The notes beneath the pieces were generated by a model, which made no database searches, was not told where the DNA came from, and saw only the letters and a program-made list of their open reading frames with translations. The translations under genes were made by a program, and so were the position numbers. From Tridacna crocea (Eukaryota; Mollusca; Bivalvia; Cardiida; Cardiidae), in NCBI GenBank assembly GCA_943736015.1, contig OX031066.1, forward strand, positions 23,730,127-23,794,126: 64,000 nucleotides of DNA, given 5' to 3'. Positions 7,164-63,965 of the stretch are shown one piece after another (positions within the stretch are counted from its first letter, which is position 1; each line of letters begins with the position of its first letter).

Positions 7164-7530
7164 AGGTGGGTAATCAAGTTTTTTTACATCACACCAAATT
7201 AAAAAATATAATTTATATATCACTGAAATCTTTATTTTAAAAAATAATACAAATCATCATAAATTAAGAATAAAAGGCTACATAGCCTCTTAACCCATTA
7301 CCACACAATCCCTACTTTTGACGCCCCAGAAAAGGAAGACTTTTGAAAACACTGTAGGAAAAGGAGAAAATGCTGATAACCAGCATTTTCTCCTTTTCCC
7401 ACAGTGTTTTGTACCCTTCCCAGAACAAATTTCAATTTTTCAGTCACATTTATTTTGTCGTCTGAATTTTCAATTTGAACCAGTCTAAAATTTTGTCGTG
7501 TGGTAAAGAGTTAAGCTATTTTTAGATTTC
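7158..7530 (+). mobile_element. GGTGGG element (5' part) interrupted by a TTAA MITE
   Basis: Begins TTAAAGGTGGGTAATC inside the gag relic and reaches AAGGCTACATAGCCTCTTAA at 7293. It is then broken by the MITE at 7290-7514 and resumes as TTAAGCTATTTTTAGATTTC. Confidence 0.65.
7290..7514 (+). mobile_element. TTAA foldback MITE, subfamily A, inside a GGTGGG element
   Basis: TTAA at 7290-7293 and 7511-7514. Removing the MITE and one TTAA restores CCTCTTAAGCTATTTTTAG, which is exactly the uninterrupted sequence of the 53.7 kb copy (minus strand). This gives direct filled/empty-site evidence for a TTAA target duplication. Confidence 0.85.
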
Positions 7531-7535
7531 CCGCC

Positions 7536-9375
7536 AAAAATAAAAAAAAGTATTAGGCTAAGGCCCAGATCAAAAAAGGGCTCTATTTTTAATTTTTTTT
7601 CAATCCATCCAGTAGAAAAATTCAAATGGTACAGTGATTTAGGATAGCCTATTAGGGTCACTTTAAGCATGGATGCCAGATCTGAAAGTGGTGCAGATTT
7701 TTTTTATATGCTAATAAACGCGCCTACCCCAAATTTGCCTATAACAAAAATTAAACTTTTCCTATGTTCACAATAATGGAAAAAAAACAATGAAACAATG
7801 CAATCTTTTTGACAAATCTTTTGAATTTAAGATGCTCATAAAAATCCACATTTGCCTGTATGTAAGACTTTTATTAAATCAAGTCTGACCAATTTCAGAT
7901 ACCGTAAAACACCTAATAAATGTTCCTAGCAGAAATGAATAGAAAACAATCTCTGAATTTCAGTCTTCACATTGAATGTGTTAATATTTCTGGCTAGATT
8001 TTTTCACAGTTTTGGCTAGAGCTACTAGGGCAGAAATGGAGGACCTGAATTAAGAACAGTTATGGAGTTTTAGCATTTAGCACCTCAAAAATGATCTATT
8101 TATGAGTGCAACAGTATAATTTGTTGTTGCACACTGACCTTTGATTTCGTTATTTCATTATATATTCACAACTGTAACCATAAGTATGCCAACATTATGA
8201 TTTGGCTATTTTCATTAATTAAGCTGCTTTATTTCCTTTGTTATTCTAAGTCTCCTACTCTATTAATCTATTTCACTGATACAATAGGGGATATGACTTG
8301 AAGCAATAGGGTCATGATGGCCCTGTATCGCTCCACTGGCTAATAAGAAAAAAAACTACAAGCCAAACATTATAGGCTAAGGCCCAGATCAAAAAAAGAG
8401 CCCTATTTCTAATTTTTTTTTTTCAATCCATCTGGTGAATTAGGATAGCCCTTTACATTCACTTTAAGCATGGATGCCAGATCTGAAAGTGGTGCAGACT
8501 TTTTTTTATATGCTAATAAACGCGCCTACCCAAAATTTGCCTATAACGTAATTTAGACTTTTCCTATGTTCACAAAAATGAAGCAGACAATGATACAATG
8601 CAATCTTTTTCACAAATCTTTTTAATCTAAGGTGCTCATAAAAATCCACATTTATGTAAGACTCACAATGTATATTAAATCAAGTCTGACTAATTTCACA
8701 TACCATAATTCACCTAATAAATGTTCCTTGCAGAATTAATTGGAACCAATCTCTGAATTTTCAGTCTTCACATTGAATCTGTTTATATTTCTAGCTAGAT
8801 TTATTCACAATTTTGCCTAGACCTACTAGGACAGACAAACAGGACAAAAATCAAGAAAACTTACTGAGTTATAGCATTTAGTACCTCAAAAATGATCCAT
8901 TTATGAGTGCCACAGTATAATTTATTGCTGCATACTAACCTTTGATTTCGTTATTTCATTATATATTCATGTCCAACCATAAGTATGCCAATACTAAGAT
9001 TTGGATATTTTCATTACTTAAGTTTCTTTATTTCCTTTGTTATTTTTACTCTTCTATTCTGTTACTCTATTTCACTGATGCAATAGGGGACATGACTTGA
9101 AACAAGAGGGCCATGATGGCCCTGTATCGCTCCAGTGGCTAATGAGTGAAAACACAACAAGCCAAACATTACAAATCCGGCCAACAAGTTTCAAACTTGA
9201 AGACATACAATAGGGTAAGGCCCAGGTCAAAAAAGGCCCTATTTTTTCATCCATTTGTTACTTTAGTTCACTGATGCAATAGGGGATCAAACTTAAAACA
9301 AGAAGGCCATGATGGCCCTGTATCGCTCCACTAGCTAATAAGTGAAAACACTACAAGCCAAATATTACAACTCTG
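7536..9375 (+). repeat. tandem duplication of an about 820 bp unit, third unit shortened
   Basis: Unit 1 (about 7536-8366) and unit 2 (about 8367-9200) align along their length. Shared marks are GGCTAAGGCCCAGATCAAAA, GGATGCCAGATCTGAAAG, GCTAATAAACGCGCCTACC, CCTCAAAAATGATC and CATGATGGCCCTGTATCGCT. A third, internally deleted unit (about 9200-9375) keeps only the ends. The CATGATGGCCCTGTATCGCTCCA mark is the 5' mark of the HINE-2 elements. Part of the unit (about 7550-7740) recurs inverted at 11950-12120. Confidence 0.65.
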
Positions 9376-10693
9376 GCCAATTGGTTTTAAACTTGAAGGC
9401 ATACATTTTTTTTCTATGAAGTTCTACGAGAATGTTATGACCCCTTGACCCCTGGGCAATGCCTTTTTTTACCACAAAGCTATAATTACTTGAAACTTGG
9501 TGGAGGTCCGTAAGATAAACTTCCATATTACATAATATAGGATGTGTGGTATACCAGAAGGTTTTCAAAGTTTCCTAAAATAAATGCCATGTAAAACATG
9601 AGACCCATGAAACAGGGCTAAATTTGGTAGCCCTAGGCCTTACTATGGTTCGTAAAAAGATCACTAAAAAAGTTTTCACCACAAAAGCCCAGGTAAAACT
9701 TGTGACCACTGGTGTGGGGACAAACTTAACCCCAAGGCTATAATTTAGGCCCTTCTGATAGAGGCCCACTATATAAAGCTACATGCAACATTTGGTAGTC
9801 CAAGGCTTTGTGGTTATGTACAACTAGGGGTTTTCCCAATATAAGCCAATATAAAAATTGTGACCCCCGGGGCCGTGCCAAATTTGACCCCAGGGCTATA
9901 AGTTGGGTATCCTTGGTTTACGCCCACTTGATAAAGATACATGCCAAATTTGGTGGCCCAATGCCCTATGGCCCGCCCTGGTGGCTCAGTGGTGATCGTG
10001 TCGGACTCATGACCTGATGGTTGTGAGTTCGATACCCGGTTGAGGTGAACTTTCTTTCCGACGTATTTTCCCCTCTCACGTCTGCTGAGGCATGTGAGAA
10101 AAATAGTCGGTGGCTATGGAAAGAAAGCTTAGTACTGGTGTGAGAAAACCAGGAAACGCATGTGCGTCACCGACCCCCATGATATGACCTTAGCTGTTGA
10201 AGTAGTGTTAAACCCCAATGCAACCAACCAATTAACCAACCAACCAAGGCTCTATGGCTAGGGATCAGAAGGATTTTAAAATTTTACCTATATAACCCCA
10301 TATATAACTTGTGACCCCCCCCCCCCCGCCCCGAGGGGTCAATTTTGACTCCATAGCTATTATTTGAAGGAACACTGTAGAGGTTCGCTACATAAAACTA
10401 CATGCCAAGTTTGGTAGCCCTCGGCCTTATGGTTTCGGATAAGAGGATTTTCGAAGGTTTTCAATATTTTTCAGTTTTGTTGCCATGGCAACCAGACTTT
10501 TTAAAGGAATCAAATTCTTTCAAGAAATTCTAAAGAAGGCCACGGCAGGATCATTTCTTTTAAGTTTCATCAAAATTGGATGGGTAGTGTCAGAGAAGAT
10601 GTTTGAAATATAAGTTAATGCACGCATGGACAGACGCACAACGGACACAGGGCTATGACATAAGCGCGCTTGCCTTCAGTCAGTGGAGCTAAA
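9294..10693 (+). mobile_element. HINE/pearl-like element, type 2 (GCTCCACTGG subterminal repeats)
   Basis: The 5' part carries a GGCC.TGATGGCC palindrome and TATCGCTCCACTAGC. The core has diverged tandem units of about 160 bp that repeat TTGTGACC..GGGGC, GGGCTATAA, ATGCCAAATTTGGTAG and a CCTA.GGCC block. The 3' end has CTTGCCTTCAGTCAGTGGAGCTAA, a worn copy of the hairpin CTGGCC TTT GGCCAG followed by TGGAGCTAA seen at 28246 and 52645. The structure (subterminal inverted repeats, tandem core, 3' hairpin close to CTAA) is that of Helentron-associated elements. A SINE is inserted at about 9972-10245. Class call is inference from structure; no transposase or Rep is present. Confidence 0.55.
9972..10245 (+). 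mobile_element. tRNA-derived SINE, family 1
   Basis: Carries a polymerase III A box (TGGCTCAGTGG) and B box (GAGTTCGATACC) at tRNA-like spacing, and a body homologous to copies at 20700, 50398 and 52728. The tail is CCAA-rich. Flanks AATGCCCTATGG and AAGGCTCTATGG look like an imperfect target duplication. The anticodon-loop position reads CTCATGA, hinting at a Met-like ancestor, but this is weak. Confidence 0.75.
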
Positions 10694-17383: not shown

Positions 17384-18504
17384 CAAGAGGGCCATGATGG
17401 CCCTGAAAATCGCTCACCTGAGTCTACTGACCAAACATGAAACATTTTCAATCTCGTTTCCCAGTGACCTACTTTTTTATCAGACATTACCCATTATCAA
17501 GCACTTTTGAGATATCAATAAGAGTACTGGACTGAAAATGTGGCCTCTACAGAATACAAAAGGTTTTTCTAAGATTTGACCAAATGACCTAGTTTTGGAC
17601 CCAACAATTACCCATTATTAAACTCTTTTGAGACATCACCAAAACAAACATTCTGACCAAATTTGAAGAGTATCAGGCAGAAAAATGTGGCCTCTAAAGT
17701 GTACACAAGGTTCTTCTAATATTTGACCCAGTGACCTATTTTTTGACTCCACATGACCCATTTTCAAAGTCATTCAAGGTATCACCAAGACAAATATTAT
17801 GAACAAGTTTCAGGAGTATCAGACTGAAAATGTGTCCTCCAGAGCATATACAAGGTTTTTATAACATTTGACCTATTGACCGTTTTTGACCAAACATGAC
17901 CCATTTTCATACAAGATATTATCAAGGCAAACATTCTCAATAATTTTCAAGAGTGTTGGACTGAAAATGTGGCATCCAGAGGATATACAAGGTTTTTCTA
18001 AGATTTGACCTGGTAACCTAGTTTTTTACCCAACATGACCCATTTTCAAACTCATCCGAGATATCATCAAAGCAAACATTCTGACCAACTTTCATGGGTA
18101 TCGGACCGAAAATGTGGCCTCTAGAGCATACACAAGGTTTTTCTAAGATTTGACCTAGTGACCTAGTTTTTGACCCGACATGACCCATTTTCAAACTCAT
18201 TCAAGATATCATCAAGGCAAACACTCTGACCAACATTCATGAGTATCGGACTGAAAATGTGGCCTCTAGAGTGTACATAAAGTTTTTCTAAGATCTGACC
18301 TAGTGACCTAGTTTTTGACCCGACATAACCCATTTTCAGTCTCATTCGAGATTTCATCCAGGCAAACATTCTGACCAACTTTCATGAGTATCGAACTGAA
18401 ACTGTGGCCTCTAGTGCCTACACAAGGTAAAAGTTGACGAAGGACGCCAGACGCAGCACTATCACAATAGCTCACTCTGAGCACTTTGTGCTCAGGTGAG
18501 CTAA
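17384..18504 (+). mobile_element. HINE/pearl-like element, type 1 (GCTCACCTGAG subterminal repeats)
   Basis: The 5' mark is AAGAGGGCCATGATGGCCCT followed by GCTCACCTGAG. The core is seven or so tandem units of about 148 bp repeating TGACC..GTTTTTGACC, ACATGACCCATTTTCA, AGATATCATCAA, ACATTCTGACCAACTTTCA and AAAATGTGGCCTCTAGAG. The 3' end is CTCTGAGCACTTTGTGCTCAGGTGAGCTAA: a hairpin (GAGCAC TTT GTGCTC) ten bases before CTAA, and CTCAGGTGAGC inverting the 5' GCTCACCTGAG. This matches the Helentron-associated (HINE/pearl/DINE) layout. Minus-strand frames across the array are translations of the repeat, not genes. Confidence 0.65.
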
Positions 18505-24400: not shown

Positions 24401-27400
24401 AGTAAACATAATCAAGCCATGCTCTGGTAAAAAGGGGCTTGTTGCAGTTCCTTGATGCATTTTACCAATCAAGCCACCATACAGTTACAGATTCATAAAT
24501 ATCATTTTGTTTCACAACTGGCTGAATCCTGTATTAGAACAGTTCTTGGATATGCAAAAAGTTTACCGATAACTAAAGGTTTTGACCCGTGTCAGCTTGC
24601 GCAAACTGCTTAAACTGGCATGGGTCAATATTTGTTGTATTTGCACTGAGTCCCCTTCTTGCAAAGCATTGCTTAATGTTTTTTTTTTTCAGAGTTCTGC
24701 TAGCTCCATCCTTTAAATAAAACTACCTAGTGTCTAATAATAATACAGATGAAAAATTATGCTATTGATTGATTGAATGATTGTATGGGATCATTTTCAA
24801 CATTATTTCAGTTATATAGCAGAAGCAAGTGCACCAAAATATTCTTTCCAAGCCAATGGCTGCTTTTCCATGTAACCATTATCACAAAAAAAAAAGAAAA
24901 AATGGCAGCAGTAGGAGAGGAATGAATCCTGTCACAATGACTGTCATCAATCCTTGGAATGAAAATTGGCCAAGCGAGGGATCAAACCAACAACTCCCTG
25001 TTCTCAAGTCCTGTATGCTTCCAAAAGAGCTATTGCGGCCGGGCTGAATGTTTATGCTAATAAAGATAAACACAAATAATACTATATAAGTTTGGCATTT
25101 GAAATTTCAACCTTGAATTACATTGAAATCTCAATTTTAGCCCATAGTCTCTTAAGATTCACTTTCGTAGTGTAGATCAAGATCAGACTGTACAGAATGT
25201 GCAGTCTAATCTTGAATCTACGCTGTCTAAAAAGGAAATATCTTTTCCCAAAAACTGCCTTTAAACTAGCAAGATTTCGGTTTTTAGTATCAGCTTGAAA
25301 GTTTCATTGCATTAATTTAACAACATAAGGGAAAATTCATTACTGATTTGAATTATTATTATGATTGTTTTATTTTCTATGTGCTAAAAAGATACAAGTA
25401 CATTAGATGAAAACTTCTGACAGATGAACAATCAAAATCTCTAATGAAAGTCCTCCTAATTAGGGATTTAATACTAAACCTTATTAGTTCTACAGCACTC
25501 CAGGTCATAAAGAGATACCATACAGCTGGAGCATCTTGCAGTCTAATGTCTTGTAAAATTAACCCAAATAGTATAAGATTTCTACCAGCAACCTGATAAA
25601 AAAACAAAGTCAACTACAGCTTCAAAGAAATAAAATCAAAAGTAAAATACATGTACCTAGTTGTATGATGGTTGTATGGCATTTAATACCGTTTTCAACA
25701 TTCAGTTATATTGCTGCAGCCAGTGCACCTATCCATGCTTTCCTTGAGTTTCTTTTTACCAACGCTCTGCATAATATTCTTTTCAAGCCACTGGCCGCTT
25801 TCCTAGACAACCATTGTGGAACTAATGGTCATCGGTGAAAGACAAATTAATCCTGTTGAAATGATTATCATCAATCCTTGGAAAGAAATTGGCCAAGCTA
25901 AGGATTCATTTCAAGTCCTGCACACTACCAATTGAGCTATGGGGGCTCAGCATTATTGGTTAAAACAAAACAAACAAACAATGATTCATATTTAACACCA
26001 CCCATGGAGAAATAAAGTGGTGCTGGTAAAAAGTATATCACGTTTTGCAACAAAGTTTCCTATCCTTTCCAAAAATCATCATTTCCACCACATTCAACTT
26101 GTTATCTGTATATACTTTCAATTAAGACAGGTTTTTCTCATGTGGCAAAGAGTTAAAAAGCATTTAACTGTTTTTCTTTTTCTATCTATATCCTTTAAAT
26201 GAAAAAAAAAAAACCTATGTCTCTAAGGCATCTTTTGACCTTTTATCTGTCAAAGAAAAAAAGAAAGAAGAGGGCCATGATGGCCCTGAAGCCACTCTCC
26301 TGAGCCTTTTGACCAAACATGACTCATTTTCAATTCTTTTTGAGATATTATGACAAACATTCTACCAAGATTTTCATGAGTATTTGACTGACAAAAGGTT
26401 TTTTAAATATTTGACTCACTGACCTAGTTGTTGACCTGAAAAGACCCACTTACAAACATCAAGACATACATTATGAAGAACTTTCATGAGTATAGCACTA
26501 CAGCTGTGTTCAGTATAAAGTACACATCTTCGAATATTTGGCCTGGTGACCTACTTTTTGACCCCAAAACTACTCAGATATATTATCAAGACAAACATTC
26601 TGACCAACTTTCAAGAGTTTCAGACTGAAAATGTGACATTTAGAGCACACACAAGGTTTTTTCTGAGATATGACCTAATGACTTAAGTTTTCAAACTAAA
26701 ATGGCCCATTTTTCAACTCCTCTGAGATATCATCAGTTTTGTGAGTAGTGCACTTGAATTGTACCTTCAAGTGCATATACAAGGTAAAAGTTGATGACAC
26801 ACTGGACACAGCATGATCACAAATAGCTACACCTTGAGAATTTTGTGCTCAGGTGAGCCAAAACAAGAAGACCATGATGGTCCTATATCGCTCACCTGAG
26901 TACTAAGCAGTCGGGTCTACAATGAAAATTCTTCTTTTTCGAGAAGATCATCATATCGTATTTGGCAGAGGTCCACTAGAAGATGCTACATAATGAAATA
27001 TCAATGCTCTACGATTTCCATTTTCAGAGAAAAATATTTTTAAAGTTTTCCTTCTTTGTTCCTATGTTTCGAATTTGTGACCCCCGCAGCTGGGCCAGTT
27101 TGGACCCCAGGGACATCATGTGAACAAACTTGGTAGAAGTTAACTAGCAGATGCTTCATACCAAATATCAAAGCTCTACTCCTTCCTGTTTCAGAGAAGA
27201 AGATTTTTAAAGTTTTCCTTCTTTGTTCCTTTGTTTCAAACTTGTGACTCCCGGGGTGGGGCCAGTTTTGATCCCAGGGGCATCATATGAACAATCTTGG
27301 TAGAGGTCCACTAGGAGATACTACATACCAAAAATCAAAGCTCTGACCCTTCTAGTTTCAGAGAAGAAGATTTTTAAAGTTTTCTGTCTTTGTTCCTATG

Positions 27401-30400
27401 TTTCAAACTTGTGACCCCCAGGCCTGGGCCAGTTTTGAACCCTAGGGTATCATATGAACACTCTTGGTAGAGGTCCACTAGGAGATGCTACATACCAAAT
27501 ATCAAAGCTTTGACCCTTCTAGTTTCAGAGAAGAAGATTTCTAAAGTTTTCTTTCCTTGTTCCTATGTTTCAAACTTGTGACCCCCAGGCCCGGCCAGTT
27601 TTGAACCCCAGGGTATCATATGAACACTCTTGGTAGAGGTCCACTAGGAGATGCTACATACCAAATATCAAAGCTTTGACCCTTCTAGTTTCAGAGAAGA
27701 AGATTTCTAAAGTTTTCTTTCCTTGTTCCTATGTTTCAAACTTGTGACCCCCGGGGCAGGGCCAGTTTTGACCCCAGGGGCATCATATGAACACACATTG
27801 TAGAACTTTATTAGGAAATCCTACTGACCAAATATCAAAGCTCTACATCTTCTAGTTTCAGAGAAGAAGAATTTTGAAGTTTTCCTTCTTTATTTTCTCT
27901 GTTTCAAACTTGTGACCCCCGGGGCGGGGCCAGTTTTGACCCCAGGGACAACATATGAACCTCTATCTAAGGAACATTCCTGCAAAATAATAATGCTATC
28001 CAGTTAACCATTTGGCAGGAGAAGATTTTTAAATTTTTTTTACTTTGGTTGCCATGGCAACCAGAATTCTTCATGGAACGCAATTATTTGAAGGAATTTG
28101 AAAGAGCACCACCTACGGAACATTCCTGTGAAATTTGGTAAAAATCCAGTCAATAGTTTCTGAGGAGAAGTTTTTTTAAAGAAAAAGTTTACGGACACAC
28201 ACAGACGGACGTACAACCGACACAACCCCATGACAATAGCTCACTGGCCTTTGGCCAGTGGAGCTAAAACCTGCACCTTCTAGTTTCATAGAAGAATTTT
28301 AAAGTTTTCCTTCTTTATTCCTGTTTCAAACTTATGACCTCAGGGGCGGGGCCAGTTTTGACCCCAGGGGCATCATATGAACAATCTTGGTAGAGGTCCA
28401 CTAGGAGATGCTACATACCAAATATCAAAGCTCTATGCCTCCTAGTTTCAGAGAAGAAGATTTTTAAAGATTTTGCTATTTTTTTCCTTTTGGTTGCCAT
28501 GGCAACAAGAAGTATGGGTGGAATTCAATCTCATGAACAACTTTGGTAGAGCTTCACCCAAGGAACATCCCTGCCAAGTTTCATCAAGATTGGCCCTGTG
28601 GTTTAGGAGGTGAAGATGTTAAAAGAAATTGTGGACGACGCACAACGGACGACGGACATTGGGCGATCACAAAAGCTCACCATGAGCACTTTGTGCTCAG
28701 GTGAGCTAAAAAAACCTGCCAGATTTTACCTGCATAAAAGGTGTCATAACACCTGTTTTAACTAGTCCTATCAATGGATGTAACACTTCTAGTATAGCTA
28801 TAACCTGACACACCATTAACTGGGTCCCAACAGTTTCGAAAGCTTTCTCTTTGGAAGCTGAAAGGGAAAAAGAAGTAAAACTTGAGAATTAACCCATTAT
28901 TCTGACAACCCTGAGAAAGAAGCCTTTAGAAAACATGGTGGAAAAAGGAGAAAATGCTGTTTACCAGCATTTTCTACCTTTCACACAATGTTTTCTAACC
29001 TTTACAAAACAAATTTCAAATTTTCAGTAACTTTAATTTTGTTGTCTGCAAATGCTTTCGATTTGGTCAAGCCTAAAATATCGTCGCTTGGTAACAAGTT
29101 AAATGTATAATACAATCATTCTTTCCAGCACACCTAGACCAAAAATACCTGGAAAGACAGAAATGCGATGTTCCCTAAATACTGAATATTATACTGTAGA
29201 GACTTTCCTGGTGCTTGTATTTACTTCCAGCTGCATGAGAAAATTTGGTATTGCGCTGGACCAAAGGCCGCGCAAGATGCCAAAATTGTCTTACACAGTG
29301 AGACGTAAATACAAGAACAAGAAAGTCACTACAGCCCAATATTCCTTTTATTATATACCTACATCCTTTCCATCACAAAATGTCACAAAATATTGAGATT
29401 TTATTTGAAAAACCGTTTTTGCATTAGTCAGTGACTTTGTCTTTATGAATGGCCGACAAATAAAACTTTGACTAACAAACTTGCAAATGCATACATAATG
29501 TATAGACTATCACCTGTGAGTTACATTATTATGACATAATTATACCAAATTTTGGAACCATATTCCACTGGGTGTAGATACAGATGTTTTTTGTCATGTG
29601 TGATTTTATCCATCTGCAACACATGTACTTACCCCACAACACATACAGGTACATAATAAAGAGGAATTTTCTTGAGCAGTATACCATTGAATTAGAAAAA
29701 TGTCCAACTGTTAAGCCTACAGGTGTAACTTGTGTTCCTTTCAAAAGAGCCATCCTCCCACAAAAGGGGTTTGATGCACCTCTCTCTCTCTCTCTGTGAT
29801 ACATCACATCAAGCAAATCAAAGGGTTATAAGGGATCGATGAAATCTGGGGGGTTTCTTTTGTGTTTTTTACCCTTAACCACATAATCCCATGTTTTAAC
29901 AACCCTAAAGAAGAAAGCCTTTTGAAAACATTTTGGGAGGAGAAAATACTGGTAACCAGCATTTACTCCTTTTCCCAAAATACTATTTCTATCATTTCTA
30001 ATGTTTTCTACCCTTTCCAAAATGTTTTCTACCCTTTCTAATGTTTCCTACCCCTTCCAACATGTTTTATACCCCTTCTAATGCTTTATACCCTTTCTAA
30101 TGTTTTCTACTGCTTCCAAAATGTTTTCTACCCCTTCTTAAAAGTTTTTACCCTTACTTGTTTTCTATCCTCTCCAAAATGTTTTCTACCCCTTCCAAAA
30201 CGTTTTCTAGCCTTCCTAATAATTACTATCCTTTCCGATGATTTCTACCCTTTCTAATGTTTTCTATCCCTTCCAGTTTTCAACCCTATCTAATGTTTTC
30301 TTCCCCTTCCAAAGTGTTTTTTATCCTTTCTAATGTTTTCTATCATTTCCAAACAGTTTTCTACCCTTTCTAATTTTTTCTACCTCTTCCAAAATGTTTT

Positions 30401-33400
30401 CTCCCCTTTCTAATGTTTTCTACCCTTTTTGATGTTTTCTACCCCTTCCAAAACATTTTCTACCCCTTCAAAAATGCTTTATACCTCTACTAATGTTTTG
30501 TTCCCTTTCTAGTGTTTTCTACCCTTTCCAAATGTTTTCTACTCTTTCCAAAATGTTTTCTACCCCTTCCAAAATGTTTTCTAACCCTTCCGTAATGTTT
30601 TCTACACCCTCCAAAATGTTATTTACCCTTTATGTTTTCTACCCTTTCCAAAATGTTTTCTACCCTTTCCAAAATGTTTTCTACCCCTTCCAGTGTTTTC
30701 TACCCTTTCCAAAATGTTTTCTACCCCTTTTAATGTTTCTACCCTTTCACAAATGCTTTCTACCCCTTCCAAAATATTTTCCACCCTTTCTGATTTCTAC
30801 CCTTTCTAATGTTTTCTAACCCTTTCAAAATTTTTCTTGTCTAATAATTCTTTCCCTTTCCAAAATGTTTTCTACCCCTTCCAAAATGTTTTTACCCCTT
30901 CCAAAATGTTTTCCACCCTTTATTATGTTTTCTATCCATTCTAATGTTTTCTACCCCTTCCATAATGTTTTCTACCTTTTCTAATGTTTTTTGTCCCTTC
31001 CAAAATGTTTTCTACCCCTTCTAATGTTTTCTACCCCTTCTAATGTTTTCTACCCCTTCCAAAATATTTTCTATCCTTTATTATGTTTTCTACCCTTTCT
31101 AATGTTTTCTACCATTTCCTTTCTTCCTTTTCCCTCCCTTTCAAAATGTTTTCTGTGTGCTTACCAGAATGTTTTCTACCCTTTTTAATGTTTTCTACCA
31201 CCTCCAAAATGTTTTCTACCCTTTCCAATGTTTTCTATCCCTTCCAGTTTTCTGCCTTTTCTCATGTTTTCTACCCTTTTTAATGTTTTCTACCACCTCC
31301 AAAATGTTTTCTACCCTTTCTTATGTTTTCTATCCTTTCATAAATGTTTTCTACCCCTTCTTATGTTTTCTACCCCTTCCAATATGTTTTCAACCCCTTC
31401 CAGAATGTTTTATATCCTTTGTAATCTTTTTACCCTTTCTAATGTTTTCTGCCCCTTCCAAAATGTTTTCCATCCTTTATGTTTTCTACCCTTTCTAATG
31501 TTTTCTACACCTTCCAAATATTTTTCTACCCTTTCCAAAATGTTTTCTACCCCATCCAAAATGTTTTCTATCCTTTCTTATGTTTTCTACCCTTTCTTAT
31601 GTTTTATACCTCTTCCAAATTTTTTTCCATCCTTTCCCAAATGTTTTCTACCCTTTGTAATATTTTCTAGCTCTTCAAAACATTTTTCTACCCTTTCTAA
31701 TGGTTTCTGCCCCTTTCAAAGTATTTTCTACCCTTTCTTATCTATTCTATCCTTTAGAAAATTTTTTCTACCCTTTGTTATGTTTTCTACCCCTTCCAAA
31801 ATGTTTTCTTTCCCTTCTAATATTTTCTACCCTTTCTTGTGTTTTCTACCCTTTATGTTTTCTACCCCTTACAAAATATTTTCTAGCCCTTCCAGATTGT
31901 TTTCCACCCTTTCTTATGTTTTCTACCCTTTATGTTTTTTACCCTTTCTAATGTTTTCTACCCTTTTGAAAATGTTTTCTATCCTATCTAAGACAATTTT
32001 CTCCAACTGAGCTACACTCAGATTGTTGTCTGCAAATGGTTTCAATTTGGACAAGTCTTACATTTTCTTGTTTGGTAAAGAGTTAAATACCAAATAAATA
32101 ATGAGGTAGACTGGTCCTTTGCCATTAACATTTTTTACAACAAATGAAAACTTGTGTGGAGTCCATGGTTGTGAGGTAAAGCATCCGCCACATAACCGGA
32201 AGGTCCTGATTTTGAGACCTGCGAGCCATGTGTCAACTTTGGGATTATTAATAAGCCCACACATTTAAATGCTAGTAACTGTGCAGTTCCCAGGAAGCGG
32301 AATTAGTATAAATTGTAAGAACTTGCTTCCAAATGGGATGTGAAATAAATATGCTTTAACTCCTTACCACACAAGAAAATTTTAAACTGGCCCAAATTGA
32401 AAGCATTTGCAGACGACAAATTAAATGTGACTGAAAAATTGAAATTCGGTTTGGGACGAGTAGAAAACATCGTGGGGAAAGGAGAAAATACTGGTTACCA
32501 GTATTTTCTTCTTTTCCCACAATGTTTTCTAAAGGCTTCTTTCTCAGGGTCGTTAAAAGTCGGGATTGTGTGGTAGAGAGTAAAAATTACAAAAATTTCA
32601 GCCAGGTTGAGCTTGCTCAGTCAGTCCAGCCTGACTTGCATTTGATACTTTTGCAGAGCTCAAATTATATTGAAAATTCAGGGTGCAAAAAATCCACTTA
32701 TCCACTCGACCTTACAGGTAAAAATTTGGTGAGAGCAAGTTTATCATCCCTCTTTGTCTAACTGTAGGACTAGTGCAAAATCACAGCAGCAAAAATAAAA
32801 TTTCTGATTTTTTTTTTTTTGACTCTGTAATTAGTCATGAACTCATTTGTCTCACCATGTCTTCATTTCTGCAGATGTATGGGACAATTATCGTTTCTCT
32901 GAATAATCCTGGGCAAACACTAGAATCAGAAATGGAAGCAATTGATAAATCCATCATCTATAATCATCTTTTTTATATACAGTAAAACCTCTCCTCCCGA
33001 CCACCCCGACAGTACGAGCAACCTGCTATTAAGAACGATTTTTGCCAGAACGGAATTTTTCCTTCTTCAAGATCAATGATCATAAACCCGGAAATACGAA
33101 AACCCGCTATTCCGATATTACGACCACCGTTTTCAGTACCAATATGAATTTACCTGTGGATTTTCACCCCGAGAAACGACCGCTCGATTTCCATAACATC
33201 TTTACAAGCAGCCAATTTTCACGCATCCGTAATCGCGAACCATAGACTGTGCCACATGTACGAATATTCTTGGGTCCGATGGAAATTACAATCAATTATC
33301 GGTCTGTTGTTTGTCCACTGACAATAGATTGTAACGTGATTGTGTTAATTAATCAGGATGTTACGTAACATAATCAAATGACCTGTGAATGGATATGTTT

Positions 33401-51000: not shown

Positions 51001-54000
51001 CGTGGTAAAATATATGTTATTTTATGTAGAGTGATTTCATTCTTTATAGTGTGATATCATTATGTTAATGTAAGAAAGTCAGTTATTCAATGGATATTAT
51101 ATGCATCCACATTTTTATTAAAAGTATGAACTTATTTTCCTTTGATTAAAAGTTGTTCATGTTAGAATCGAAATATTATTGTTCAATAACCACATTATGA
51201 ACTACGAGGAGCAATGAATAAACCACTTGGGCTATCACCCTCATGTATTTATAACATTGCCTCATAACTCAAAATGGTGGTTTATTGAATAAACCACGAT
51301 AGAAGATTATTTCTTAAATAAATGTACCTTACCACACACCAAAAATGTAGACTTTTTCAAAATTCATCTTTGATAGAGTATCCATAATTTTGAACAAGAG
51401 CTTCGCAGAGCTGCGCATATACGCCCAAAGGGGCCTGTCGGTGAAATGGGTTAAAAACTTAAAATCTATAACAACCTACAGAGATCCAAATTTTAAGAGA
51501 TTCATTGTGGCAAGTTCCAAGTTATTCCAAATGGAAACCGTAGGAGTTGCGCCCACAAAAAATTGCTAAAGGAGAGCCAAATGGACAGACAGACAGACGA
51601 CCAGGGCCATAACATTTGAAAATGACATGAAAGGTGCAGTTCTGGAACAGAAAAAACTGTATGATAGAAACCTGACTTTGTTTTTGACGACATTTTACTC
51701 ATCTGATCACAATTCCCATCAAAATAAATCAATCTTTCTGAAAACTGAACATTTTCTAGTAAAAATCTTGACTCATAATACCAATCATGTGAAAGAGTAG
51801 TTTGAAAATCAGGGCTCTAAACAGTGCAAAACTTTATATCTCTTTTAATATAAGTTATTTCCCTTGATCAGTACACATACAGATTTAATTACGGTAACCC
51901 TTTACCAAACGAGAAAATTTCAGACTGGTCCAAGTTGAAGGCATGTGCAGACGATAAAATAAACCTCAGTCAAAAATTGGAATTTGTTTCTCGCAGGGGA
52001 GAAAATATTGTGAGAAAAGGAGTTACCAGCATTTTCTCCTTTTCCCTCAATGTTTTCAAAAGGCTTCTACCTCAGGGTCGTAAAAACCAGGGATTGTTTG
52101 GTGAAGGGTTAATATGAGTTATTTCCCTTGATCATTACACATATAGATTTAATTAAGTCAGCATATCATCGGTGTACTTCCAAAACCTCGTAACTACAGC
52201 TCGTTACAAGCTGTAGTTACGAGGTTTTGGAAGTACACCGACGATATGAGCCTATTCTAAACCTGTGATCCCTGTGATGGTGCTAATTTTAACCCATTGG
52301 CTACAACTTCAACAATCTTGGTAGAGGCCTAGATCTATTAGATGAAACTACTAGCCAAAGAGTGTAGCCCTTGGCCTTTTGCTTTCAGAAAAGAAGGTTT
52401 TTAAATATTTTCAATATTTTTCTGTACTGTTGCCATGGCAACAAGAGTTTTCAATTGGAATTATATTCTTTGAAGGAATTTTTAAGAGGACCATAGCATG
52501 ATTATTTCTCTGAAGTTTCATAAAAATTGGTTGGGTAGTTCTAGTGAAGTTGTATGAAAAAAAGTTACACGTAATTCACACATGGATAGATGAACCCATT
52601 GATGGAACAGACAGACAACAGGCCATGACATAAGCTTGCTGGCCTTTGGCCAGTGGAGCTAAAAATCTTTCAAAAGCCTGTTCCTTGTGAGAAAGTAGGG
52701 TCAGTATTAGTCCTTTACTTTGTATAGCCCGCAAGGGTGGCTCAGTGGTGAGCGTGTCGGACTCATGACCTAGTGGTTGTGAGTTCGATACCCCGTCGAG
52801 GCGAACTTTCTTTCCGGTGTATTTTCACCTCTCGCCTCTGCTGAAGCATGTGAGAAAAGTAGTTGGTGGCTTTGGAAAGAAAGTTGTGTTAGTACCAGTA
52901 TGAGAAAGCCAGGAAATACATGTGTGTCACCGACCGCTATGATATGACCTTAGCTGTTAAAGTGGCTTTAAACCCCAACACAACCATTTACTTTGTATAG
53001 ACAGATATTATTATGTTGCAGTATTATTCAAAAACATAGAATTTGTGGCAAATGGAGAAACTATTGGTAATGAAATATTTCTCTACTTGCTACACTGTTT
53101 TCTTGGAAACATGCACTTATATATCAATTCAGTCATAAGCTGTTTCATATCTGTAATCCTTCCATATGTTGAAGAGCTAATCCTCCACCAGACGATGAAA
53201 ATTTATAGTTATCCAAATTATAAGTACTTGTTCAACTTTAACGTGGCTCAAAAATGTCAATTTTTTATAGGGTAGAAAACATTGTGGAAAAAAACAAAAA
53301 AAAACAAGAAAATCTTGTTCTTGCAATGTTTTCTACAAGCTTCTTCCTCTGGGTTGTTAAAGGTGGCCCTTCAGATTTTGGGACGAAAATTTTACAAAAG
53401 TGCAAAAAAATCATCCTTATACTTACAAAGCCTTTTAATTTTCATTCATATAACCCCAGTAGTCGAAAACCGTCCGACAACACGAGAAATTAGAAATTTA
53501 CTACGGCCCAGGTTGACACCAACGGGAGACACCTTCTATTTTTAGATGATTAAATTCTCCCATTTACATACAGGAATACACAGAGGAAGCTTCAAACATA
53601 GCGTCCGAAGAAGACTTATGGAAAATAATTATTACATGTTTGTTATGATAGGGAATTTAAGCATTATGAGTCACGTGCCAGTCACTTGACATTCCCACAA
53701 TGCTTTAGTGATTTTTGGCGCGAAATCTAAAAATAGCTTAAGAGGCTACGTAGCCTTTTAAGGGAATACCCTCAAAAAAATTTTTTTTTGTAATTTTATG
53801 AATCTTAATTATTGATGATTTGTATTATTTTTTCATATCAATTTCAGTGATATATATATTTTTGAATTTGGTGAGATGTAAAAATTCTAAATACCCACCT
53901 TTAAAAGTCAGCATTGTGTGATAAAAGTGGAATATGCAAATCTAGTTATGGATTTACATGCTATTACATGAAGATTAGTATGTTAGGTATTTTGAAACAA

Positions 54001-56298
54001 CAGCCTGTCTCTTTCTTTGTATGCATATTAACCCTTTACCACACAATCCCTACTTTTGACGACCCTGAGACAGAAGCCTTCAGAAAACATTGTGGGAAAA
54101 GGAGTAAATGCTGGTAACCAGCATTTTCTCCTTTTCCCACAATGTTTTCTACCTTTCAAAACACAAATTTCAAATTTTCAGTCGCTTTTACTTTGTTGTT
54201 CTCAAATGTTTTCGATTTGACAAGCCTAAAATTTCGTTGTTTGGTATTATCTAATTCTTTCTCTGAAGAATGCTTTGGTAACCAGCATTTTCTTCTATTT
54301 CCCCACAAAGTTTCTGCCCTTTTTCTCACTTACACCATCATTTGAGTCACAATAGAAGGGTTTTTGGTTTTTGTTTTTTGCTTGCTACAAGCCATTGCTC
54401 AAAGACTTTCCCATAAATCTATCATTAACCCTTTCACACAGAGCAGAACTTTAGACCTATCCTAAGCATTTTCAAATGAAAATTTCACAGTGGCTCAAAT
54501 AATGCAATTTTTCTTTGATAGGGTAGAAAACTTTGTGGGGAAAAGGGAAAATGCTGGTTACCAGCATTTTCTCCTTATCCCAGATAGTTTTCAACAGGCC
54601 TCTTCCTCAGGGTCATTAAAAGTCGTCATTGTGAAGTAAAGGGTTAACAAAATCCATTGTTCTTCCCTTCAAGTATTTTTCCCACAGGTCCTTTAAGTCT
54701 TTACGAATGAAAAAATTCTGGAAAAGACAAACTGAAGCATTTGCTGATGACAAATCAAATATGGCAAAAACTGAATTCTGTCATTGGAGGGGGAGAAAAC
54801 ATTGTGGGAAAAGAAGAAAATGATGGTTACCAGCATTTTCTCCATCTCCCATAATGTTTTCAAACACGTTCTTCATCACTTTGGTAAAACTCGACATTGT
54901 GTGGTACAGGGTTAAAGCACTCTGGTGTGTCTGGATTGCTCGTTGAATGGTGTTTAATGCTGTTTTCAACATTATTTCAGTTATATCACTGCAGCCAGTG
55001 CACCTATCTATACTTTCTTGGAGTTTGTTTTACCAGTGTTCAGCACAATATTCTTTCCAAGCCATTGGCTGCTTTCCCATATATGAACAATCTAAACAAT
55101 GATCAGCTGCGAGAGAAGAATGAATCCTGACACAATGACTTTCATCAATTCTCTGAAAGAAATTGGCCTAGCTGGGAATCAAACCAGGGACTTCCTGATC
55201 TTGAGGCCTGTTCGCAAGGTCCGATTTTGCTATCCATGTCTAGAAACGGCCAATGTGCGGTAATGGGCTAAAATGCCAGGTTTATACAAGTACCTCCCAT
55301 TCCTCAGCATCTTCATGGACTGTGATGGGTAGTGAAGTCTTATCAAAGAAGTGTAGGGCCCTGTTTGTAGTCACCAACTTAACTTCGATCTACAATACAG
55401 ACACAGATATGTTTATAACATTTTTTTTTAAATTCCAGACTCATTCTATATCATTGTGTACCTCTGCACTTAGTTAACTCTTTACCATACAATCCCAACT
55501 TTTAATGACCCTAACGAAAAAGCCTTTAAAAACATTGTGGGAAAAGGAGAAAATGCTGGTTACCAGCATTTTCTCCTTTTCCCACTATGTTTTCTACCCT
55601 TTCCAAATCAAATTTCAATTTTTGATTCACGTTTATTTTGTCATCCGCAAATGCTTTCAATACAAACTAGCCCAAAATTTGTCGTTCGGTAAAGAGTTAC
55701 CAGGCGGCAAAAATTTAGACTTATTCAAATTGAAAGCATTTGCAGACGACAAAATTAACGTTACGTTATCTAAAATTAATTTTTTCTGAGAGGGTAGAAA
55801 ACATTGTGAAAAAAGGAGAAAATGATGGTTACCAGTATTTTATCCTTGTCCCACAATGTTTTCAAAAGGCTTCTATCTCTGGGTCGTAAAAAATACAGGG
55901 ATTTCTTGGTAAAGGGTTAAGCAAGCAAGTAAAAAAGAAGTTAATAATAATGATGATGATGATGATGATGAAAAAAAGACGTTACTTGATCATTTTCAAA
56001 TTTCTTAATTTACGAACTGCAATTATATGCACGAACACCACAACAATAAAGTACAGTGTAGATTTTCTAAGACTTGAGATGTATCCGAAATACTAGATAC
56101 GTCCAAATACGTATCTAATTCTACTTTCAGTTTTACAACCATTGCATACAGACAAGTAGATGTAGCCTATGCAACCGGGCTATTTTTTAATTAATCGTTA
56201 ATGGTGCTTACCTTCAGCTTCAGAAGTTCTTCAACAAGTATTGGTATTTTGATAGAAGCAACGCTGCCGGTGCAGCACAGCAAAACTTTATAGGTCAT
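47980..56298 (-). CDS. PPCDC: PPCDC, phosphopantothenoylcysteine decarboxylase (complete, five exons)
   Basis: Exons (minus, in order): 56212-56298, 55294-55389, 50802-50930, 48699-48867, 47980-48056; together 558 bp, 185 residues plus TGA (human PPCDC is 204). Residues 1-29 give the first flavoprotein strand with GSVASIK. WADLLLIAPLDANTLAKIA with the preceding active-site histidine (VLHIELRRW, residues 70-78) is the FMN and catalytic region. FAPAMNTYMW is the PxMNxxMW substrate motif, and MCGDKGAGAMAE holds the reactive cysteine of the substrate clamp. The enzyme is a cytosolic FMN-dependent trimer that decarboxylates 4'-phosphopantothenoyl-cysteine to 4'-phosphopantetheine, the third step of CoA synthesis. 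All junctions are GT..AG and in phase, and all key residues are present, so the gene looks functional. The introns carry many MITEs, two SINEs and foldbacks. Confidence 0.96.
48158..48590 (+). mobile_element. HINE-like element, 5' fragment (type 1)
   Basis: AAGAGGGCCAAGATGGCCCT then TCACTCACCTGA is the type 1 5' mark. The 3' hairpin end is missing. PPCDC intron 4. Confidence 0.5.
48595..48682 (-). mobile_element. half of a TTAA MITE, subfamily A
   Basis: Only one hairpin arm and one terminus remain (TTCTCCTTTTCCCACAATG to GTGCGGTAAAAAGTTATAA). Confidence 0.5.
48699..48867 (-). CDS. PPCDC: PPCDC exon 4 (residues 105-161 part), PAMN motif and clamp cysteine
   Basis: FAPAMNTYMWEHPLT and the TLMCGDKG start of the substrate clamp. 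Acceptor CTGCAG, donor GTATGTG. A half MITE lies 16 bp beyond the donor. Confidence 0.96.
49225..49450 (+). mobile_element. TTAA MITE, subfamily A
   Basis: CCGCACAATCCC left end, hairpin slightly diverged, right end GTGTGGTAGAGTTAG. Confidence 0.7.
49611..50130 (-). mobile_element. SINE family 2 split by a MITE
   Basis: The left part (to 49738) and right part (from 49960) are the two halves of a minus-strand family 2 SINE. The break is at ATTCTT-TTAA-AGCCACTGG, where other copies read ATTCTT-TTCA-AGCCACTGG. Confidence 0.75.
49735..49963 (+). mobile_element. TTAA foldback MITE, subfamily A, inside a SINE
   Basis: TTAA at 49735-49738 and 49960-49963, near-consensus interior. Confidence 0.85.
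50398..50670 (-). mobile_element. tRNA-derived SINE, family 1 (minus), inserted in a palindrome
   Basis: Complete copy with the tRNA-like head at the right. Target duplication GTAATGGGTACT (50386-50397) and GTTATGGGTACT (50671-50682), the sequence of one palindrome arm. Confidence 0.75.
50671..50727. repeat. perfect 26 bp-arm palindrome, GGGTACTCATTAGAATCGTC type
   Basis: Arms are exact inverses around CATCA. Second copy of the 46631 palindrome. It lies 75 bp from PPCDC exon 3. Confidence 0.85.
50802..50930 (-). CDS. PPCDC: PPCDC exon 3 (residues 62-104), active-site histidine
   Basis: VLHIELRRWADLLLIAPLDA then NTLAKIAHGICDNLL, the most conserved part of the family. Acceptor TTTCAG, donor GTATGTT. 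Confidence 0.97.
51000..51855. other. PPCDC intron 2 sequence, no gene recognised
   Basis: AT-rich. Contains a block at 51395-51600 (AAGAGCTTCGCAGAGCTGCGC onward) similar to 48925-49170, a diverged short repeat with GACAGACAGACGACCAGGGC. Confidence 0.4.
51857..52159 (-). mobile_element. TTAA MITE (51894-52112) between 48 bp direct repeats
   Basis: The MITE has the A ends but a shortened left hairpin arm. The segment AGTTATTTCCCTTGATCA.TACACATA.AGATTTAATTA occurs on both sides (51862 and 52116). Confidence 0.7.
52163..52247. repeat. near-perfect foldback, 39 bp arms
   Basis: ATATCATCGGTGTACTTCCA then AAACCTCGTAACTACAGCT, with the inverse after a CGTTACA loop; one mismatch. A worn relative is at 44570. 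Confidence 0.85.
52270..52664 (+). mobile_element. HINE/pearl-like element, type 2, 3' fragment
   Basis: About one and a half core units (TTGGTAGAGGCCTAGATC, GTTGCCATGGCAACAAGAG), then the intact 3' end: hairpin CTGGCC TTT GGCCAG, GTGGAGCTAA. Confidence 0.6.
52728..52986 (+). mobile_element. tRNA-derived SINE, family 1, with exact target duplication
   Basis: A box TGGCTCAGTGG, B box GAGTTCGATACC. Flanked by the exact 14 bp repeat TTTACTTTGTATAG (52714-52727 and 52987-53000), the signature of target-primed retroposition. The youngest-looking SINE 1 copy here. Confidence 0.85.
53370..53908 (-). mobile_element. GGTGGG element, near-complete copy with an empty TTAA
   Basis: On the minus strand it runs from TTAAAGGTGGGTATTTAGA (53908) through CCTCTTAAGCTATTTTTAG (53730s) to TTTCGTCCCAAAATCTGAAG. 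It is the uninterrupted reference for the copies at 7158 and 63189. Confidence 0.75.
54028..54252 (+). mobile_element. TTAA foldback MITE, subfamily A
   Basis: CACACAATCCCTACTTTTGA left end and perfect hairpin; right TTAA lost. Confidence 0.75.
54425..54647 (-). mobile_element. TTAA MITE, subfamily A
   Basis: Exact TTAA at both ends; the loop-side hairpin is intact. Confidence 0.75.
54693..54915 (-). mobile_element. TTAA MITE, subfamily A
   Basis: Exact TTAA at both ends, with a diverged but pairing hairpin. Confidence 0.7.
54935..55200 (-). mobile_element. tRNA-derived SINE, family 2 (minus)
   Basis: Full body with CTTTCTTGGAGTTTGTTTTA, ATTCTTTCCAAGCCATTGGC and TTGGCC.AGC.GGGAATCAAAC (worn B box). 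Ends about 90 bp from PPCDC exon 2. Confidence 0.65.
55294..55389 (-). CDS. PPCDC: PPCDC exon 2 (residues 30-61)
   Basis: IEVKLVTTNRALHFF and the EDAEEWE end, matching the family strand-helix. Acceptor TTGTAG, donor GTACTTG. Confidence 0.94.
55474..55920. mobile_element. two TTAA MITEs in opposite orientation sharing one junction
   Basis: 55474-55698 (plus) and 55695-55920 (minus) meet at TTAC 55695-55698. PPCDC intron 1. A GAT repeat follows at 55951-55975. Confidence 0.7.
56212..56298 (-). CDS. PPCDC: PPCDC exon 1 (residues 1-29)
   Basis: MTYKVLLCCTGSVASIK and a first helix. The start was chosen because it opens directly before the first flavoprotein strand. Donor GTAAGC, phase 0. Confidence 0.94.
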
Positions 56299-62121: not shown

Positions 62122-62581
62122 TTAACCCTTTACCACACAATCCCAACTTTTTAGGACCCTGCGATAGAAGCCTTTTGAAAACATTGTAGGAAAAGGAGTA
62201 CCGGTAAATGCTGGTAACTAGGATTTTCTCCTTTTCCCACAATGTTTTTTACCCTTCCCAATACAAAATTAATATTTTCAGTCACTTCTATTTTGTCGTC
62301 TGCAAATCCTTTCAATTTAGACCAGTCTAGAACTTGTCATTTGGTAAAGAGTTAACCCATTACCACACGACAAAATTTTGGACTAGTCCAAATAGAACAC
62401 ATTTTGTAGATGACAAAATAAACATGAATCAGCAAATGAAATTTGATTTGGAAAGGGTTGAAAACATTGTGGGGAAAGGAGGAAATGCTGGTTACCAGCA
62501 TTTTCTCCTTTTCCCACAATGTTTTCATAAGACATCTTTTACAGGTTCGTTAAAAGTCAGGATTGTGCGATATAAAGTTAA
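62122..62581. mobile_element. two TTAA MITEs in opposite orientation sharing one TTAA
   Basis: 62122-62355 (plus) and 62352-62581 (minus) joined at TTAA 62352-62355. Both have full hairpins. Confidence 0.8.
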
Positions 62582-62803: not shown

Positions 62804-63032
62804 TTAACCCTTTCCCAAACAATCCCTGGTTTTTACGGGTCAGGAATAGAAGCCTTTTGAAAATATTGTGGGAAAAGGAGAAAATGCTGGTAACCAGCAT
62901 TTTCTCCTTTTCCCACAATGTTTTCTACTCTATCATATAGAAAAATAAACTTTTTAGCAACTGTTAATTTGTCATCTGCAAAATGCTTTGAATTTGGTGT
63001 GGTCCAAAATTTGCCATTTGGGAAAGGGTTAA
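62804..63032 (+). mobile_element. TTAA foldback MITE, subfamily A
   Basis: Exact TTAA ends; the right TTAA (63029-63032) is also the start of a GGTGGG element. Confidence 0.8.
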
Positions 63033-63192
63033 AGGTGGGTATTTAGAATTTTCACATCACACCAAATCAAAAAATATTTATATCACTCAAATTTATATGA
63101 AAAAAACAATTCAAATCATCAATAATTAAGAATCATAAAATTACAAAAAAAAAAAATTGAAGGTATTCCCTGAAAAGGCTACATAGCCTCTT
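63029..63192 (+). mobile_element. GGTGGG element, short copy
   Basis: TTAAAGGTGGGTATTTAGAA to GGCTACATAGCCTCTTAA. It is followed at once by a second copy sharing the TTAA. Confidence 0.75.
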
Positions 63193-63965
63193 AAAGGTGG
63201 GTATTTAGAGTTTTCACATCACACCAAATTAAAGACAATATAATTTTTTATATCATTAAAATTTATATGAAAAACCAATACAAATCATATATAATTAAGA
63301 ATCATAAAATTACAAAAAAAAGTTTTTTTGATGGTATTCCCTTAAAAGGCTACGTAGCCTCTTAACCCTTTACTCCACAGATACTTATTTCTACGCATTG
63401 CTTGTAGGAGTCTTTGGAAAACATTATGGCAAAAGGTGAAATTGCTCGTGACGAGCAATTTCACCTTTTGCCACAATGTTTTCTATGCTATCAAAAGGTG
63501 TCATATACACATAAGAAACAGCTTCATCCTTGCTGTTATTTAGGGTCAATTAGAGATACCATGGAAATGCCTTATGGGGTAAAGGGTTAAGCTATATTTA
63601 GATTTCGCGCCAAAAATCAATAAAGCATTGTGGGAATGTCAAGTGGCTGGCACGTGACTAATAACACTTAAATTCCATTACATAACAATCATGTAATAAT
63701 TATTTTCCATAATGTCTTCTTCGGACAGATGTTTGAAACTTTGTCTGTGTTTTTCTGTATTTAACACAATCTAAAAATAGAATGTGTCTCCCGTTGGTGT
63801 CAACCTGGGCCGTAATAAATCTCTAATTTCTCAAGTTATCAGATGGTTTTCGACAACTGGGGTTTTATGAATGCAAATTAAAAGGCTATGGGAGTATAAG
63901 GATGATTTTTTTGCATTTTTGTAAAATTTTCGTCCCAAAATCTGAAGGGCTAATTTTAGATTTCG
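63189..63965 (+). mobile_element. GGTGGG element, long copy interrupted by a subfamily B MITE
   Basis: Same start, broken at CCTCTTAA by the MITE at 63362-63590 and resumed as TTAAGCTATATTTAGATTTC. It then runs to TTTTCGTCCCAAAATCTGAAG. A further repeat of ATTTTAGATTTCGCGCCAGAAAT begins at 63954 and runs off the edge. Confidence 0.75.
63362..63590 (-). mobile_element. TTAA foldback MITE, subfamily B, inside a GGTGGG element
   Basis: Exact TTAA ends. The hairpin AAAGGTGAAATTGCTCGTGAC and its inverse are perfect. Orientation is opposite to the other B copies. Confidence 0.85.

What the first reader, a model, noticed from the sequence alone, without database searches (positions are those of the whole stretch)
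7290..63590. Same TTAA hit twice: filled and empty sites in three copies of one host repeat
The GGTGGG element has an internal CCTCTTAAGCTATTTTTAG. It is empty at 53.73 kb, filled by a subfamily A MITE at 7290-7514, and filled by a subfamily B MITE at 63362-63590. The two insertions are independent (different subfamily and orientation) yet at the identical TTAA. This proves TTAA target duplication inside this window and suggests a preferred site.
Basis: seen in the sequence. Interest (0 to 1): 0.8.

Follow-up and report, generated by a model that had tools for sequence, protein, structure and literature searches.

The report
Favoured TTAA landing pads in a transposon
In this animal genome small jumping elements have landed again and again in the same two TTAA spots of another abundant jumping element, far more often than in two other TTAA spots of it that were checked, so its thousands of copies act as a natural test of what makes a landing site attractive.

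Summary
The filled and empty sites are real. At 7290-7514 and 63362-63590, TTAA MITEs of two subfamilies sit in the same internal TTAA ("site 3") of a 540-bp TTAA-flanked repeat; the copy at 53.74 kb is empty. Both junctions are exact. One detail is wrong: the two MITEs lie in the same orientation.

Exact-flank counts over the 1.05-Gb genome give 143 filled to 5551 empty at site 3. The neighbouring TTAA ("site 2", across a 12-bp palindrome) has 308 to 7333. A control TTAA ("site 1") has 15 to 5562, 11 of the 15 being MITEs. So this TTAA is used about 12-fold more than the control, but site 2 is hotter still. The host repeat inserts into itself with a similar bias: 97 at site 2, 59 at site 3, 7 at site 1.

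A flank model from 49 unrelated MITE targets ranks sites 2 and 3 above the controls, suggesting base preference around TTAA. Pokey/mPok of Daphnia is the closest precedent. New here are the scale and the bias shared by two unlike TTAA elements. Most likely a new member of a known kind.

The parts
7164..7289 (+). host repeat copy 1, left part with an internal deletion that removed site 2; begins after TTAA 7160-7163
7290..7514 (+). subfamily A MITE (7294-7510) with TTAA on both sides, in site 3 of host copy 1
7515..7554 (+). host copy 1 resumes after site 3 (short, then truncated)
53361..53900 (-). complete 540-bp host copy between TTAA 53357-53360 and 53901-53904; site 3 empty at 53738-53741, site 2 empty at 53758-53761
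62808..63028 (+). MITE abutting the host repeat, sharing TTAA 63029-63032
63033..63190 (+). left part of outer host copy
63191..63194 (+). site 3 TTAA of the outer host copy, filled by the inner host copy (self-insertion; genome place C11:23793310)
63195..63361 (+). left part of inner host copy
63362..63590 (+). subfamily B MITE (63366-63586) with TTAA on both sides, in site 3 of the inner host copy
63591..63950 (+). inner host copy resumes; right terminus eroded
63949..64000 (+). outer host copy resumes just past site 3 and runs off the window
2117..2297 (+). left half of a further host copy; its site 3 (CATC-TTAA-ACTATTTTTAG) is empty

Best explanation
The GGTGGG repeat is a 540-bp DNA transposon without a long reading frame that inserts at TTAA (termini AGGTGG...CCACCT). 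Two of its internal TTAAs, one on each side of the palindrome GGCTACGTAGCC, are favoured targets. TTAA MITEs that resemble piggyBac elements have landed there independently many times with TTAA duplication, and the repeat has inserted into itself there too. Shown: exact TTAA junctions, independence of the sampled events, and occupancy about 12-fold (site 3) and 20-fold (site 2) above a control TTAA of the same repeat. Inferred: movement is cut-and-paste; the preference comes mainly from the bases next to TTAA (A avoided and C favoured just 5', with the complement 3'), much as reported for Pokey/mPok in Daphnia; the MITEs are moved by a piggyBac-type transposase of this genome.
For: MITE filled:empty by exact-flank pattern: site 3 143:5551, site 2 308:7333, site 1 15:5562; odds ratios against site 1 after removing non-MITE matches 12.7 and 20.2. 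Non-MITE share: 3 of the 100 listed of 143, 5 of the 100 listed of 308, 4 of all 15, 1 of all 12 at consensus 241. Self-insertions: 59, 97 and 7 at sites 3, 2 and 1. Exposure is similar: in the filled host copy of 28 site-3-filled loci, site 1 is intact by exact pattern in 8 and site 2 in 12; site 1 with TTAA in looser context in 16. Of 15 MITEs touching host repeats that were not the reason a locus was fetched, 3 are at site 2, 1 at site 3, 8 at the host's own boundary TTAA, 3 near consensus 215 and 338, none at 35, 93 (site 1), 241 or 463. A flank model from 49 unrelated MITE targets gives 9.0, 2.7, 0.6 and 0.3 for sites 2, 3, 1 and 241; permutation p 0.005 and 0.0014. 118 matches to the piggyBac transposase domain.
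Against: The flank model rests on 49 targets: cross-validated AUC is 0.63 and bootstrap intervals are wide (site 2/site 1: 1.4-174; site 3/site 1: 0.7-32). With 3 or 5 flanking bases instead of 8, a model that still included MITEs adjoining other MITEs put sites 2 and 3 only at 1.5- to 2.4-fold. A large mouse dataset found no motif beyond TTAA around piggyBac hits (PMC3983033, passages). The shared bias of two different elements could equally come from DNA shape or chromatin at the palindrome. The published CC[C/T]T end motif is present at both ends in only 5 of 38 inserts. Of five piggyBac loci inspected, one (L084) showed TTAA-flanked inverted repeats with CC ends, CCCTTTATATAC, sharing only CCCTTTA with the MITEs; another (L086) had a 14-of-16 match without CC ends; no parent was found. 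Empties at consensus 241 were not counted genome-wide. Of 10 site-2 self-insertion loci, three are copies of one amplified composite.
Confidence: 0.7

Rival explanations
1. The two hot TTAAs are favoured because they flank a 12-bp palindrome (cruciform, bend or open chromatin at the centre of the host repeat), not because of the adjacent bases.
For: Both hot TTAAs sit on the two sides of GGCTACGTAGCC, and MITEs and the host repeat itself share the bias.
Against: Among 85 MITE targets outside host repeats, stems of 6 bp or more within 25 bp are hardly commoner than at 1161 other TTAAs (7.1% against 5.9%). Decayed palindrome centres are commoner in filled copies (13 of 29) than in empty ones (5 of 36), as expected from age, so this decides nothing.
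Confidence: 0.25
2. No preference: MITEs are so dense here that repeated hits at one TTAA are expected.
For: MITEs cover 12,177 of 64,000 bases in the window, with 440 TTAAs outside them; outside host repeats in held sequence there are 85 full-length targets for 1079 free TTAAs.
Against: Site 1 of the same repeat is hardly used, and consensus 241 has only 11 MITEs.
Confidence: 0.05
3. Sites 2 and 3 are ordinary, and site 1 and consensus 241 are abnormally cold.
For: The general MITE:TTAA ratio outside host repeats (85:1079) exceeds the occupancy of every host site counted; the flank model puts site 1 and 241 below 1.
Against: The general ratio probably accumulated over a longer time than the host copies have existed, so the levels are not comparable (inference); the model also puts site 2 in the top 0.4% and site 3 in the top 6% of TTAAs.
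Confidence: 0.2
4. Filled copies multiplied from a few filled ancestors.
For: It does happen: L073, L076 and L081 (host-in-host at site 2) share outer flanks at 97-99.8%.
Against: 30 MITE-filled site-3 copies and 10 site-2 copies share no outer flanks over 300 bp in matching position, and carry MITEs of several subfamilies in both orientations.
Confidence: 0.03

Closest known systems
Pokey and mPok (piggyBac superfamily, Daphnia), PMC3849761 (passages read)
   Same: TTAA MITEs that use one TTAA of a repeated unit although the unit holds over 30; weak flank preference including C one base 5' of TTAA; about 23% of mPok copies tandem on a shared TTAA.
   Different: There the unit is rDNA and use is almost exclusive; here the unit is another transposon, two TTAAs are favoured, only about 2-4% of copies are filled, and the host repeat itself shares the bias.
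CMITE of Acropora corals (piggyBac-related MITEs), PMC2872659 (parts 1-3 of 4 read)
   Same: TTAA duplication, CCCTTT... ends, internal region better conserved than the ends, tandem arrays, a filled/empty pair.
   Different: About 100 bp and an estimated 1600 copies there; about 221 bp with a central palindrome and 58 stretches in this 64-kb window alone here. No sequence comparison was made.
T2-MITE / Kolobok superfamily, PMC6004289 (passages) and PMC9587614 (passages and three sections)
   Same: The host repeat inserts at TTAA and has AG...CT termini, matching the 5'-RR...YY-3' description.
   Different: Inverted repeat of only about 6 bp; no autonomous relative or transposase was sought. 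KolobokP long direct repeats (about 450 or 660 bp, 3-5-bp duplications) do not match.
piggyBac hotspots in HEK 293 cells, PMC3078864 (passages read)
   Same: piggyBac returns to one TTAA and ignores neighbours and near-identical sequences; sequence context proposed.
   Different: Five hotspots hit twice each in cells; here a natural series of hundreds of hits in thousands of copies.

Membership tests
piggyBac-type MITE (the inserts) | TTAA target duplication | tested here: met
piggyBac-type MITE (the inserts) | termini CC[C/T]T at both ends (motif from PMC2872659) | tested here: not met
   5 of 38 inserts have it at both ends; of 76 ends 17 are CC[C/T]T, 25 CCCA, 26 CTC, 8 other. The window's B copy meets it, A does not. 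The same paper lists one piggyBac with CCCATT ends. I therefore call the inserts piggyBac-like only
piggyBac-type MITE (the inserts) | short, uniform, without transposase frame, abundant | tested here: met
   inserts mostly 221 nt; 58 merged stretches in 64 kb; longest frame 31 and 53 aa in the two window copies
piggyBac-type MITE (the inserts) | autonomous piggyBac with the same inverted repeats | tested here: inconclusive
   118 PF13843 matches; five loci inspected, one with TTAA-flanked CCCTTTATATAC ends, sharing only 7 bases with the MITE
Kolobok superfamily (the host repeat) | TTAA duplication and 5'-RR...YY-3' termini | tested here: met
   18 copies, chosen for TTAA on both sides and these ends; four of them (L002, L004, L005, L007) were fetched by site 3 alone and seen whole; definition from PMC9587614
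Kolobok superfamily (the host repeat) | Kolobok transposase in an autonomous relative with the same ends | not tested
   no search was made; the host repeat is therefore only called Kolobok-like
KolobokP long terminal direct repeat | length near 450 or 660 bp, 3-5-bp duplications | tested here: not met
   540-bp consensus with TTAA; values from PMC9587614

The most novel reading that the evidence does not exclude
The host repeat carries a double TTAA landing pad around a palindrome that draws two unlike TTAA elements (piggyBac-like MITEs and the Kolobok-like repeat itself), so that an abundant transposon acts as a sink that absorbs new insertions.
Probability: 0.2. Interest if true: 0.6.

Novelty: new member of a known kind. 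Interest (0 to 1): 0.4.

Why it matters
Thousands of similar host copies, each offering the same internal TTAAs, form a natural target-choice experiment. It shows that TTAAs within one 540-bp repeat differ about 10- to 20-fold in use, and that two unlike TTAA elements agree on which are good. That makes the old question of what a TTAA transposase reads beyond TTAA testable from sequence alone.

Tried and rejected
Palindrome enrichment near other MITE targets: hardly any. A first flank model included MITEs that adjoin other MITEs, whose ends mimic a motif; it was rebuilt without them. KolobokP long terminal direct repeats as the identity of the host repeat: length and duplication size do not fit. 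Baseline MITE density as the whole explanation: rejected by site 1. Age bias (site 1 present only in young copies): not supported, site 1 is exact in 8 and site 2 in 12 of 28 filled copies (one search gave 12 and 14 matches in 30 loci, but counted other host copies and two loci that are not MITE-filled). Palindrome state in filled and empty copies: uninformative because filled copies are older. The self-insertion denominators use two-sided flanks while the self-insertion patterns use one flank; the resulting undercount is of similar size at the three sites.

Dropped before counts: L016 and L022 (not MITE); L052, L053 and L055 from pooled sequence (they overlap L049-L051). In one search the pattern was short, so some of the 11 MITEs may lie outside the host repeat. 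The right junctions of the 7 site-1 self-insertions were not looked at.

Full report
What is there. The window is part of contig C11 of an unnamed 1.05-Gb genome of 31 contigs. The 'GGTGGG element' is a transposon of about 540 bp: 18 copies, chosen for TTAA on both sides and intact ends, give a consensus AGGTGGGTATTTAG...GAAGGGCCACCT without a long reading frame (34 aa at most). Its internal TTAAs lie at consensus 35, 93, 140, 160, 241 and 463. I site 1, 140 site 2 and 160 site 3; site 3 is the TTAA of the finding. The palindrome GGCTACGTAGCC lies between sites 2 and 3.

The observation. At 7290-7514 and 63362-63590 a MITE with TTAA on both sides splits site 3. At 53738-53741 site 3 is empty. 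The junctions are exact. The MITEs belong to different subfamilies but lie in the same orientation, unlike the report. About 1.2-1.5 kb of flank on both sides of the 7-kb and 53-kb copies and on the left of the 63-kb copy show no similarity to each other beyond MITE copies (one match ran 19 bases past the MITE mask). The 63-kb host copy is itself inserted at site 3 of an outer host copy: left junction clean at 63191-63194, right junction eroded near 63947. So in this window the same TTAA has taken three insertions, two MITEs and one host repeat. A further half copy at 2117-2297 has an empty site 3.

Is it chance? MITEs are very dense here: 58 merged stretches cover 12,177 of 64,000 bases, so a double hit in one window proves little. 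I therefore counted the genome with exact flanks, of the same length within one base at each site, and inserts of 200-230 nt. Site 3: 143 filled, 5551 empty. Site 2: 308 filled, 7333 empty. Site 1: 15 filled, 5562 empty. Some filled matches are not MITEs: 3 of the 100 listed of 143, 5 of the 100 listed of 308, and 4 of all 15. Corrected occupancy is about 2.4%, 3.8% and 0.2%; odds ratios against site 1 are 12.7 and 20.2 (the site 3 and 2 corrections extrapolate from the 100 listed). At consensus 241, 12 matches were found, 11 of them MITEs. Its empty sites were not counted genome-wide; in held loci the exact empty pattern occurs 30 times against 31 for site 1, so its occupancy is probably also near 0.2%. 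Sites 35 and 463 were not counted.

Independence and exposure. Thirty site-3-filled copies (28 fetched loci and the two of the window, the 63-kb one tested on its left only) and ten site-2-filled copies share no outer flanks over 300 bp in matching position; the closest pairs of inserts are about 95-96% identical, and several subfamilies and both orientations occur. In the filled host copy of 28 site-3-filled loci, site 1 is intact by exact pattern in 8, site 2 in 12 and consensus 241 in 7; site 1 with TTAA in a looser context is seen in 16. So filled copies did expose site 1, somewhat less often than site 2 by this strict measure, which cannot explain a 12- to 20-fold gap. Among 15 MITEs touching host repeats that were not the reason a locus was fetched, 3 are at site 2, 1 at site 3, 3 near consensus 215 and 338 where the consensus has no TTAA, 8 at the host's own boundary TTAA, and none at 35, 93, 241 or 463. 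In L030 both site 2 and site 3 are filled.

Self-insertion. The host repeat joined to the left flank of site 3 occurs 59 times, of site 2 97 times, and of site 1 7 times. Of 20 site-3 loci, 14 have the inner copy in the same and 6 in the opposite orientation. Ten show an intact TTAA and a recognisable site-3 right flank, two have TTGA, one a flank deletion, one a different right flank, and in six the right end was not found. The three loci are the same places as L052, L053 and L055. Of ten site-2 loci, three are one amplified composite. The bias against site 1 is 8- to 10-fold by raw counts, of the same order as that of the MITEs.

Why these two. From 49 MITE targets outside host repeats and away from other MITEs I built a model of the eight bases on each side of TTAA. 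A is avoided and C favoured just 5' of TTAA, with the complement 3'. It scores sites 2, 3, 35, 1, 241 and 463 at 9.0, 2.7, 0.7, 0.6, 0.3 and 0.3. Random sets of 49 TTAAs rarely rank the sites so (p 0.005 and 0.0014 for two statistics), but bootstrap intervals are wide, the cross-validated AUC is 0.63, and an earlier model with only 3 or 5 flanking bases gave sites 2 and 3 just 1.5- to 2.4-fold. Palindromes are hardly enriched at 85 other targets. I therefore favour base preference over palindrome structure, without excluding the latter. The bias shared with the host repeat is the least explained part.

Which transposases. The MITEs duplicate TTAA and have ends near the piggyBac motif, but the strict CC[C/T]T motif stands at both ends in only 5 of 38 inserts, so I call them piggyBac-like and do not file them as members. 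The genome has 118 matches to the piggyBac transposase domain (a lower bound, 116 of 196 candidates were scored). Five loci were inspected. L084 has a 2.76-kb unit with TTAA and 12-bp ends CCCTTTATATAC, sharing only CCCTTTA with the MITEs; L086 has a 14-of-16 match without CC ends; in the other three nothing clear was seen. The parent is not identified. The host repeat has the termini described for Kolobok, but no transposase was sought.

What is known. Pokey and its MITEs in Daphnia use one TTAA of the rDNA unit despite over 30, with weak flank preference including C just 5' of TTAA, and many sit in tandem on shared TTAAs (PMC3849761, passages). piggyBac hotspots with neglected neighbouring TTAAs were reported in HEK 293 cells (PMC3078864, passages), whereas a large mouse dataset found no motif beyond TTAA (PMC3983033, passages). 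Coral CMITEs show TTAA, tandem arrays and conserved internal regions (PMC2872659, three of four parts). My searches listed no paper whose title or abstract start describes a TTAA hotspot shared by Kolobok-like and piggyBac-like elements; the library is open-access only and most listed papers were not opened.

Verdict. The system is a new example of a known behaviour, with unusually strong numbers and one open question: why two unlike TTAA elements agree.

Noticed in passing
window 35712-36145, 36975-37793, 55478-55916, 62126-62567: MITEs stand next to each other, apparently sharing a TTAA; 36 of 85 full-length MITE targets outside host repeats in held sequence adjoin another MITE.
   Followed up: partly
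MITEs in the window, e.g. 7346-7410 and 63417-63483: Subfamilies A and B share a central palindrome of about 65 bp that is more alike between them than their ends.
   Followed up: no
L073, L076, L081: A host-in-host composite with its flanks occurs at three places at 97-99.8% identity, so it was amplified as a larger unit.
   Followed up: no
L084 (G000:C10:28375100-28378900): A 2.76-kb TTAA-flanked piggyBac unit with 12-bp ends; three further matches score within 0.2 bits of it, suggesting recent activity.
   Followed up: partly
L049, L060, L061, L067, L068: Several self-insertions have GGTATTTTTAG or similar instead of GCTATTTTTAG right of site 3, perhaps a subfamily of the host repeat.
   Followed up: no
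window 29946-31991: Array of short units spaced often 19, 21 and 40 nt, partly matching MITE sequence.
   Followed up: no
window 26926-28484 and 17625-18428: Tandem repeats of about 167 nt and about 145 nt.
   Followed up: no
window 6980-7160: Sequence left of host copy 1 looks by eye like a retrotransposon gag with Cys-rich knuckles (label recalled, no search run).
   Followed up: no
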